Assembly (NCBI RefSeq): GCF_000383235.1
Contig: NZ_KB910945.1
Span: 1-64,000, forward strand
Source of the DNA: Bacillus sp. 123MFChir2
GTDB taxonomy: Bacteria; Bacillota; Bacilli; Bacillales; Bacillaceae_G
Length of the DNA stretch: 64,000 nt
Direction: 5' to 3'
Of this stretch, positions 11,395 to 13,258 are shown in pieces. Both the position numbers and the translations under genes were made by a program. Under the pieces are notes generated by a model. It was not told the DNA's origin and searched no databases. It saw only the letters and a list, made by a program, of their open reading frames with translations. Numbering within the stretch: position 1 is the first letter of the stretch; every line of letters starts with the position of its first letter.

Positions 11395-12819
11395 TTAACT
11401 GACTTTTGTATCAAGTGTATCTGATTTCTTTTCAATCGTATTTTTCATAATGAATGGATAAAGAACGAGTCCAACTACAAATAATCCGATTCCTAGTAAG
11501 AAAGTTTTCATATCAGCTGTTCCTGTTTTGATAACCCAAATGGAATAAATAAGAGCAAGTACTGTGATGAATCCGTCCAATTTGCGAGAGCCTTGCATGT
11601 TGTTATATGTTTCACCAGTAAGAACGAGTTTTAATTGATACATTGTTGAAACAAGATATGGAATTAAATAAGCAAGCGTAGCGACGACAATTGCAAAGTT
11701 ATACGCTTCTGATACTGACCCGGAAATGGTAGAGAATAAGAATATTTGTGTCATGATATTTGTTAATAACAATGAGTTTTTCGGACTTCCTTTTTTATTT
11801 GTTTTTCCAAAGAATGCAGGGAATAGTCCGCTTTTTGCTGCTTGATATGGAACTTCTGCACTTACAACGATCCAGCCTACTGTAGAACCGAATAGAGAAA
11901 CAAGTGCTAGAAAGGCCATAATGTATGCACCTTTATTACCAATCGCCATGTTTAATGCATCAACTAATGGTTTTTGCGATCCTTTTAGCGCTTCTTGTGG
12001 AAGAGCACCCATTGTTAACAATGTAATGGCTACATAAATAAGAAGAGCAATGACTAATCCAAAAATCGTTGCTTTTTTTACATCGCGCTGTGACTTTGCA
12101 CGGTTTGAAAGCATAACAGCTGATTCAATACCAATAAACGCCCAAAGTGTTGCGATAGCAGCAGCATTGATTTGTCCGCCTAATGGAATGGATCTTCCAG
12201 CCTCATTCATAAACGTTTGCCCATCGCCGAAATTCGCTGCATTAAAAATGAATAATGTAATGATAATAAACATCGTAAATCCAATAATTTTTGCAACAGT
12301 TGCAAGTAAGTTCATATTACCAGCACGATCAATATTTTGCGAAAGAATATATTGAATGCCCCATAGCATCACACTACATACAGCAAATGTTAAGGCTTTT
12401 CCTAGTTCTAACGAGAAACCATTTGTCGTGAACAAAACTTGTTTACTTTGCAGAACTGGGAAAAATGTAGATAAATATCCTGCAAATGAAATAATGACAG
12501 AAGCTGTTGCCGCCCAGTTTGCCGCCCAGTATCCCCACGCCATACTATAACCAGCAACTTTACCAGCTTTTGGTGAAGTGAACATTGCTTGTGCGTAACT
12601 TTGCGGACCTGCCTTTAAATTTGGTTTTCGCATTGCTAAGTTTCCAAACACGAGTGCGATCATAAATACACCTAGCCCGGTAATTGTCCATGCAAGTGTA
12701 GATCCCATTGGTCCTGATACTTGTGCTAAATTTGCCGGAAGCATAAACACGCCACCACCAACCATATTTCCAACAACGAATGCTGTTAAAACCCATAAAC
12801 CCCATTTTTTTGTTTCCAT
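11395..12819 (-). CDS. APC-family basic amino-acid antiporter-like permease
   Basis: 474 residues with twelve predicted helices. The N-terminus WGLWVLTAFVVGNMVGGGVF carries the first-helix GxGxG-type substrate loop of the APC superfamily. The sequence is of the basic amino acid/polyamine antiporter kind (arginine:ornithine antiporter-like, YvsH-like). The start ATG at 12819 has AAAAGGAG upstream. It is monocistronic, with a 3' terminator shared with the XrtG cluster. Its roughly 240-base leader encodes a peptide with four His codons and a terminator, so histidine or a related compound is a plausible substrate. That is inferred from the leader, not from the protein. Confidence 0.85.
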   Translation of the reverse strand: METKKWGLWVLTAFVVGNMVGGGVFMLPANLAQVSGPMGSTLAWTITGLGVFMIALVFGNLAMRKPNLKAGPQSYAQAMFTSPKAGKVAGYSMAWGYWAANWAATASVIISFAGYLSTFFPVLQSKQVLFTTNGFSLELGKALTFAVCSVMLWGIQYILSQNIDRAGNMNLLATVAKIIGFTMFIIITLFIFNAANFGDGQTFMNEAGRSIPLGGQINAAAIATLWAFIGIESAVMLSNRAKSQRDVKKATIFGLVIALLIYVAITLLTMGALPQEALKGSQKPLVDALNMAIGNKGAYIMAFLALVSLFGSTVGWIVVSAEVPYQAAKSGLFPAFFGKTNKKGSPKNSLLLTNIMTQIFLFSTISGSVSEAYNFAIVVATLAYLIPYLVSTMYQLKLVLTGETYNNMQGSRKLDGFITVLALIYSIWVIKTGTADMKTFLLGIGLFVVGLVLYPFIMKNTIEKKSDTLDTKVS

Positions 12820-12889
12820 GATTGTCTAACTCCTTTTGATGATAGTTTTTTTATTTTATGATTTATTGTACCTAGTGTTTTTTGGAAAT

Positions 12890-12999
12890 AAAAAAGAGCC
12901 ATGTAGATAAAAAATACCTACATGGCTCTTTGCCTAACGTAGGTACAACGGGAATAACCCTTGTACCTACGCGTGAATTTTTCCGCTAGGTTTCAAGGG
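12890..12999 (-). promoter_or_regulatory. Candidate translation-coupled attenuator of the permease gene
   Basis: Downstream of the leader peptide three mutually exclusive pairings can be drawn. (1) 12987-13001 with 12956-12969, about 13 bp, involving bases that begin at the leader stop codon. (2) 12938-12948 with 12961-12971, an 11-bp perfect stem. (3) A terminator, 12894-12906 with 12918-12930, 13-bp perfect stem followed by TTTTTT. A further 9-bp pairing (one G-U) links the second hairpin's 3' arm (12937-12945) to the 5' arm and loop edge of the terminator. Overlapping structures plus a regulatory peptide are the hallmark of ribosome-mediated attenuation. Confidence 0.75.
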
Positions 13000-13000
13000 T

Positions 13001-13057
13001 TTACGTATGATGATGATGTTTTTGTGCAAATGTAACTACAGTTGTATTAGTAAGCAT
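13001..13057 (-). CDS. His-rich leader peptide
   Basis: An 18-codon ORF, MLTNTTVVTFAQKHHHHT, starts at an ATG at 13057 with GAGGAGAAAGGGAG about 10 bases upstream and ends in TAA at 13001-13003. Four consecutive CAT codons lie two codons before the stop, exactly where a paused ribosome would cover the first pairing segment of the downstream hairpins. It is too short to be a typical protein and fits an attenuator leader sensing charged tRNA-His. Such leaders are classical in proteobacterial his operons; in Bacillus, T-boxes usually do this job. Confidence 0.75.
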   Translation of the reverse strand: MLTNTTVVTFAQKHHHHT

Positions 13058-13258
13058 AGTTCTTTGCTCCCTTTCTCCTCTGATTTTGAAGTAAGTATAC
13101 TACATGTTTTTTAGAAAGGGAAGAGAAAAAACATATTTTTATAAAAATTCATTTTATTGGTTAAATATTCGAGGTGAGTTTTCCTTCAATATTTTATAGA
13201 TTTTAGCAGTGATTTTAAGATTTATGGCGAATTATGTAGAGAAGAGAGGAGTGGTTAT

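What the first reader, a model, noticed from the sequence alone, without database searches (positions are those of the whole stretch)
12890..13057. Histidine-codon leader peptide and attenuator before an amino-acid antiporter in a Bacillus
A leader ORF with its own ribosome site encodes MLTNTTVVTFAQKHHHHT, and the downstream RNA offers overlapping alternative stems and a clean terminator with 13-bp stem. The first pairing segment starts at the stop codon just after the four His codons. Known: translation-coupled his attenuation is a proteobacterial hallmark; Bacillus mostly uses T-boxes for amino-acid genes. Inference: the permease is controlled by charged tRNA-His, so its substrate is histidine-related. 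The pairings seen do not give an unambiguous sign: a ribosome stalled at His would block the first stem and favour the second, which leaves the terminator free, so regulation could be opposite to the classical scheme.
Basis: partly seen in the sequence, partly recalled or inferred. Interest (0 to 1): 0.8.

Follow-up and report, generated by a model that had tools for sequence, protein, structure and literature searches.

The report
Histidine leader switch before histidine permease
A short messenger-RNA switch, read by a ribosome that pauses when histidine runs short, most likely turns on a histidine-uptake gene; the kind of switch is known in these bacteria, but its use on this transporter appears new and helps to name the transporter's cargo.

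Summary
On the minus strand, an ORF with its own ribosome site (13057-13001, MLTNTTVVTFAQKHHHHT) precedes overlapping stems and a 17-bp terminator, upstream of an APC permease (11395-12819). The same element stands before orthologous permeases in Ectobacillus and Bacillus sp. 165, and relatives stand before hisZ, hisS-like, yuiF-like and hisD genes (25 elements with the window's). All four alternative stems show paired changes, 3:4 most weakly.

The likely sign is the normal one, not the opposite. Five segments pair as 1:2 with 3:4 (ON) or 2:3 with 4:5 (OFF). Segment 1 lies beyond the modelled front edge of a ribosome waiting at the first His codon, so a stalled ribosome leaves it free and the antiterminator forms; a ribosome at or past the stop covers it and the terminator forms.

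In 42 of 50 permease relatives a HisR-type operator is found instead, and the genomes of the two attenuator relatives lack hisR. So an RNA switch has replaced a repressor site at a permease that two independent controls tie to histidine. His-leader attenuators are published for his, hisZ and hisS* in this group: a new member of a known kind. No wet-lab evidence.

The parts
13094..13099 (-). candidate -10 box TATACT of the leader promoter
   Evidence: read from sequence; resembles boxes after the HisR operators of relatives by eye; not tested
13067..13074 (-). ribosome-binding site of the leader ORF (AAAGGGAG)
13001..13057 (-). leader peptide ORF MLTNTTVVTFAQKHHHHT, four CAT codons at 13018-13007
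   Evidence: His codons kept in relatives
12984..13001 (-). segment 1 (AACCCUUG + ACCUAGCG), pairs with segment 2
   Evidence: (hairpin 1:2, -21.2 kcal/mol)
12956..12973 (-). segment 2 (CGCGUAGGUACAAGGGUU), pairs with 1 or 3
12932..12952 (-). segment 3 (CCCGUUGUACCUACGUUAGGC), pairs with 2 (-21.0) or with 4 (antiterminator, -13.9)
12915..12931 (-). segment 4, 5' arm of the terminator (AAAGAGCCAUGUAGGUA)
12893..12909 (-). segment 5, 3' arm of the terminator, running into the U tract; hairpin 4:5 -25.2 kcal/mol
11395..12819 (-). APC-superfamily amino-acid permease (474 aa), predicted histidine uptake permease
   Evidence: HisR operators at orthologues

Best explanation
This is a translation-coupled histidine attenuator of five pairing segments in front of a histidine-uptake permease. 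Shown by computation: the parts, their conservation with the His codons at two orthologous permeases, paired changes in the four stems, and segment 1 lying just past the His codons. Inferred: when tRNA-His is uncharged the ribosome waits at the first His codons, its front edge stops short of segment 1, 1:2 forms, segment 3 is left to pair with segment 4, and the terminator is pre-empted (permease ON). When histidine is plentiful the ribosome runs to the stop and covers segment 1, 2:3 forms, 4:5 forms and transcription ends (OFF). In HisR-bearing relatives the same permease is instead under a HisR operator; the attenuator stands in for it where hisR is gone.
For: Same element at orthologous permeases, with MFNVTLFAQLHHHT (L048) and MFNTTMFVQLHHHT (L021). 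Covariation on an 11-sequence alignment (10 distinct rows): pairs with changes on both sides 7 (1:2), 4 (2:3), 2 (3:4), 4 (4:5); the covariation score is reached by 0, 0, 1 and 0 of 500 shuffles and exceeds every slid version. The outermost 1:2 pair, just after the first two bases of the stop region, is standard in 10 of 10 rows. Ribosome-mask folding: P(segment 4 paired upstream) in the window is 0.98 at His1, 0.71 at the stop, 0.31 one codon past; the drop, taking the lower of stop and stop+3 as OFF, is matched by 5 of 300 shuffles in the window and by at most 6 of 300 in 10 of the 11 elements tested. E. coli his and thr controls come out ON at their early stalling codons. HisR core in 43 of 50 permease loci, 42 without the chance match at L021; 2.67 per kb against 0.071 elsewhere in the same loci. 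hisR model TIGR02531 in 46 of 65 genomes, not found in those of L048 and L021. Related elements stand before hisZ (14 of 14 checked by tblastn), hisS-like, hisD and yuiF-like genes.
Against: No experiment. The mask folding is a thermodynamic snapshot, not kinetics, and the OFF value depends on the exact footprint: 0.71 (window) and 0.82 (L102) at the stop, falling to 0.31 and 0.21 three nt further. By a second definition of segment 4 the window's values are 0.74 at His1, 0.45 at the stop, 0.19 past it. Two elements behave poorly: L089 (drop matched by 87 of 300 shuffles) and L109 (fold with the ribosome at His1 is not 1:2 plus 3:4). The number of pairs changed on both sides is itself not above shuffles for 3:4 (251 of 500) and only moderately for the others (39, 11, 34 of 500). 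The 14-18 nt spacing was measured with everything before position 13 removed, so its lower bound is built in; unmasked, most leaders also pair bases further upstream. E. coli his gave 0.35 at its last His codon and 0.66 at its stop. hisR and a His leader coexist in G002, G101 and G258. One relative stands before an alpha/beta hydrolase (L102), two before no recognisable gene (L087, L088), and the genes behind L104 and L109 start some 430-590 nt downstream. No B. cereus-group genome was compared.
Confidence: 0.82

Rival explanations
1. Reversed sign: a ribosome stalled at His blocks segment 1, so the terminator forms under starvation and the permease (for instance an exporter or exchanger) is on when histidine is plentiful.
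For: Masking segment 1 fully does favour the terminator side.
Against: Segment 1 starts 17 nt after the first nt of His1 in the window, beyond a recalled front edge of about 12 nt; even with His4 in the A site the window stays at 0.74. Targets of related elements such as the his operon would be expected ON under starvation. HisR-type control of the orthologues implies derepression when histidine is low (PMC9413887, passages).
Confidence: 0.06
2. The leader ORF is only a translated element; the structures act through another signal (a protein, or general translation slowdown), and histidine specificity is accidental.
For: No experiment shows His dependence; the no-ribosome state is also predicted ON (0.98, 0.72 by the measure), so any block of leader translation would raise expression.
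Against: The rest of the peptide changes freely while the His codons stay, and targets are mostly histidine genes.
Confidence: 0.07
3. A plain terminator with a chance His ORF.
For: Terminator-like sites occur at about chance rate in the region.
Against: Conserved ORF, stems and layout across lineages.
Confidence: 0.02

Closest known systems
His leader peptides of hisZ and hisS* in bacilli (PMC2965389; passages and section 10 read)
   Same: Short ORF with a His run plus attenuator in Bacillus, proposed from comparison; our models also find elements before hisZ and hisS-like genes.
   Different: Target here is an APC permease, which the parts read do not mention. Their sequences were not compared directly.
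B. cereus-group his-operon RNA attenuator (PMC9413887; passages and sections 6 and 8 read)
   Same: Three to five His codons directly before attenuator, antiterminator and terminator stems, in genomes without HisR.
   Different: They report only the his operon for this group; the transporters named in the parts read are HisXYZ and YuiF. Their alignments (Additional file 6) were not read, so segment logic could not be compared.
Enterobacterial his attenuator (His_leader, RF00514)
   Same: Works alike: His codons, mutually exclusive stems, terminator (recalled; E. coli copy used as control).
   Different: No Rfam match. Without a ribosome E. coli his reads OFF (0.00) and the window ON (0.72) in the same computation, but E. 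coli thr also reads 0.74.
HisR (YerC) operator at the orthologous permease
   Same: Same gene, same amino acid, by repression.
   Different: DNA operator next to the promoter instead of an RNA switch; no core in 600 nt upstream of the window's gene, none at L048, and at L021 only a chance match in the terminator tail.
trpB ncRNA motif (RF04312)
   Same: Hairpin plus terminator of similar layout; 34.7 bits in the window and 39.5 in L109.
   Different: Below its gathering score of 59.

Membership tests
Leader-peptide transcription attenuators | short ORF rich in codons of the regulating amino acid | tested here: met
   ribosome site, four His codons, His codons in relatives; translation itself not shown
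Leader-peptide transcription attenuators | mutually exclusive RNA stems ending in an intrinsic terminator before the gene | tested here: met
Leader-peptide transcription attenuators | ribosome position decides between the stems | tested here: inconclusive
   in silico only; 10 of 11 elements tested switch beyond shuffles, L089 does not, L109 folds otherwise; footprint-sensitive
Leader-peptide transcription attenuators | read-through responds to charged tRNA-His in the cell | not testable with these tools
   needs a reporter
Leader-peptide transcription attenuators | regulated gene belongs to the pathway of the same amino acid | tested here: met
   indirect: HisR operators at orthologues, histidine genes behind related elements; transport not assayed
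Enterobacterial His_leader RF00514 | match to the Rfam covariance model | tested here: not met
T-box riboswitch | Rfam T-box match in the leader | tested here: not met
HisR regulon | TTTA-N6-TAAA operator upstream of the permease | tested here: not met
   none within 600 nt upstream in the window; present at 42 of 50 relatives
TIGR00905 basic amino acid/polyamine antiporter | score above curated cut-off | tested here: not met
   352.8 against 409.05 bits

The most novel reading that the evidence does not exclude
The His elements form one five-segment class, moved among histidine genes, in which the stalled ribosome acts by not reaching the first segment, so the untranslated RNA is ON by default and termination needs a completed leader. 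It has replaced a HisR operator at a so far unnamed APC-family histidine permease, beside YuiF and HisXYZ.
Probability: 0.5. Interest if true: 0.62.

Novelty: new member of a known kind. Interest (0 to 1): 0.5.

Why it matters
It assigns a likely substrate (histidine) to an APC permease found in many Bacillaceae that general models place near basic-amino-acid antiporters, by two unrelated controls on the same gene. It also gives a clear case of a repressor operator and an RNA attenuator exchanged at one gene, and a ribosome-spacing prediction that can be tested at the bench.

Tried and rejected
Rejected: T-box or other Rfam family at gathering score in the window and in 15 permease loci. Reversed sign. 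Spread on plasmids or viruses: no match in the plasmid collection or to one pattern in viral contigs. A His leader before hisG in four hisR-less genomes (G001, G005, G007, G020): none in the stretches examined. Single origin of the attenuator at the permease: the protein tree neither shows nor excludes it. L002 and L006 carry a different His-rich leader with a HisR site and no terminator; I first took it for a translational attenuator, but the opening of the ribosome site gave no clear sign, so it is left open.

Of 21 loci inspected, 17 were set aside as chance matches because they had no His-rich leader ORF of this kind; some further weak or antisense hits were not inspected. Three antisense rows (L086, L087, L088) sit in alignment A3; the pair count made on it is not used. 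My count of 43 of 50 HisR cores includes L021, whose match lies in its terminator tail; I use 42 (checked). My first reading of the segment spacing as a free measurement was corrected: the mask sets its lower bound.

Full report
What is there. On the minus strand the permease gene 11395-12819 is preceded by an ORF with its own ribosome site, MLTNTTVVTFAQKHHHHT (13057-13001), and a 17-pair terminator at 12931-12893. The leader folds more stably than all of 200 shuffles. No Rfam family matches at its gathering score. The permease belongs to the APC superfamily (Pfam AA_permease_2), scores below cut-off for the basic amino acid/polyamine antiporter model and has AdiC-type solved relatives.

Relatives of the permease. 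A scan of genome contigs gave 52 loci, of which 50 are clear permease relatives (52-79% identity) and none has a B. cereus-group title. Two carry the same leader RNA: L048 (Ectobacillus panaciterrae, MFNVTLFAQLHHHT) and L021 (Bacillus sp. 165, MFNTTMFVQLHHHT). R1 finds no other strong match in the 53 sources. L002 and L006 carry a different His-rich leader.

A class of elements. A covariance model from the three (R1) was searched in 19 genomes of one family, and one from nine (R2) in 397 genomes of the order with stricter filters and in 11 genomes with looser ones. At E <= 0.001, 31 of 397 genomes rang, but many matches are terminator-like only. I accept elements with a His-rich leader ORF: 24 in 20 genomes, 25 with the window's. 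L110 (HHNR), L109 (HHT) and L094 (HDHH) have shorter or broken runs. They precede this permease (3, window included), hisZ of the his operon (14; all 14 by tblastn with the L092 protein, 48-100% identity, directly downstream on the same strand), histidyl-tRNA-synthetase-like genes (2; in L109 about 590 nt downstream), a PF03553 permease that I take for YuiF from recall (2; L104 by 94.7% identity to L103, starting some 430 nt or more downstream), hisD (1), an alpha/beta hydrolase (1), and no recognisable gene (2).

Structure. Five segments give four pairings. On alignment A5 (11 sequences, 10 distinct) the share of standard pairs is 86.6% (1:2), 81.6% (2:3), 92.2% (3:4) and 97.7% (4:5). Pairs with changes on both sides number 7, 4, 2 and 4; shuffles reach these counts in 39, 11, 251 and 34 of 500, but reach the covariation score in only 0, 0, 1 and 0 of 500, and every slid control scores lower. 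Shuffles do not keep relatedness. The inner part of 1:2 is poorly kept. By eye, the window's GUAGG/CCUAC/UGUAGG/CUACA becomes GCAGG/CCUGC/UGCAGG/CUGCA in L088, a change carried through segments 2 to 5 together. In the window, hairpins 1:2 and 2:3 are about equally stable (-21.2 and -21.0 kcal/mol), 3:4 is -13.9 and 4:5 -25.2.

Mechanism. Using a recalled ribosome front edge of 12 nt past the first nt of the A-site codon, I folded the leader up to the end of segment 4 with the covered part removed (21 of the 25 elements). P(segment 4 paired upstream) with the ribosome at the first His codon was 0.73-0.98. At the stop it was 0.71 in the window, 0.47-0.61 in L085-L089, 0.82 in L102, 0.10-0.14 in the yuiF-type and 0.18-0.29 in the hisZ-type; one codon further it was 0.31 in the window and 0.21 in L102. 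In 11 elements tested against 300 shuffles each, the drop (OFF = lower of stop and stop+3) was matched by at most 6 shuffles in 10 and by 87 in L089. With that mask, the first paired nt lies 14-18 nt after the first nt of the first His codon in 24 of 24 elements, while the stop begins 9-24 nt after it; the lower bound of 13 is set by the mask, and unmasked folds of many leaders pair bases further upstream too. Independently of the mask, the outermost aligned 1:2 pair is standard in 10 of 10 rows and lies 17 nt after His1 in the window. With the ribosome at His1, L109 clearly does not fold as 1:2 with 3:4. Controls: E. coli his is ON (0.68-0.69) at His8-13, 0.35 at His14, 0.66 at the stop and 0.00 without a ribosome; E. 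coli thr is 0.90 at most Thr codons, 0.00 at the stop and 0.74 without a ribosome; in the same script the window reads 0.74 at His1, 0.45 at the stop, 0.19 past it and 0.72 without a ribosome. The method is crude, and an ON default without translation is not unique to this class.

Exchange with HisR. The HisR core TTTA-N6-TAAA (consensus from PMC9413887) lies within 350 nt upstream of 43 of 50 permease loci, 2.67 per kb against 0.071 elsewhere in the same loci; one of the 43, L021, is a chance match in the terminator tail, leaving 42, which are listed, most with a -10-like box a few bases after it by eye. Many of the 50 are close relatives, so they are not independent. L001, L004, L005, L040, L044, L045 and L048 have no core. 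The window has none in 600 nt upstream. The hisR model TIGR02531 matches 46 of 65 genomes searched (L001 not held); the 19 without a match are those of L048 and L021, G005-G020, and G059, a metagenome assembly whose permease has the operator. PMC9413887 reports that the B. cereus group lacks HisR. The exchange is not absolute: G002, G101 and G258 have both hisR and a His leader at another gene. G004 (L021) shows no hisG, so it may depend on uptake.

Known and new. His leader peptides in bacilli were proposed for hisZ and hisS* (PMC2965389) and for the his operon of the B. cereus group (PMC9413887); I read passages and named sections, not the supplements. Five searches of the paper library listed no paper that I recognised as placing such a leader before this permease; apart from these two and passages of PMC2494555 I saw only the listings. 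So the element is a new member of a known kind; its target and the operator-for-attenuator exchange are what appears new.

Noticed in passing
L002 and L006, about 75-165 nt upstream of the permease: A second, unrelated His-rich leader ORF (HHHRYHHHSC / HHHQNHHHSC) lies between a HisR site and the permease, with no terminator; a stem next to the ribosome site suggests control of translation.
   Followed up: partly
L102 (G001:C13:27405-27530): A close relative of the element, leader MIAKKIQFMTTAHHHF, precedes an alpha/beta hydrolase gene with no evident link to histidine.
   Followed up: partly
L087 and L088: Orphan copies of the element (leaders MLRLLIVAQLHHHT, MLRLLIIAQLHHHT) with no recognisable gene behind them, as if the regulated gene had been lost.
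   Followed up: partly
L110 (G101:C26): A histidinol dehydrogenase gene behind an HHNR leader in a genome that also has hisR.
   Followed up: partly
G004 (genome of L021): No hisG found by TIGR00070, so perhaps a histidine auxotroph relying on uptake.
   Followed up: no
window 13120-13094: The window's promoter keeps GTAGTATACT, like boxes after HisR operators in relatives, with CCCTTTCTAAAAAACA before it, possibly a decayed operator.
   Followed up: no
window 12887-12973; L109 1543-1633: Sub-threshold resemblance to Rfam RF04312 (trpB ncRNA motif), which may be a Trp counterpart of similar layout.
   Followed up: partly
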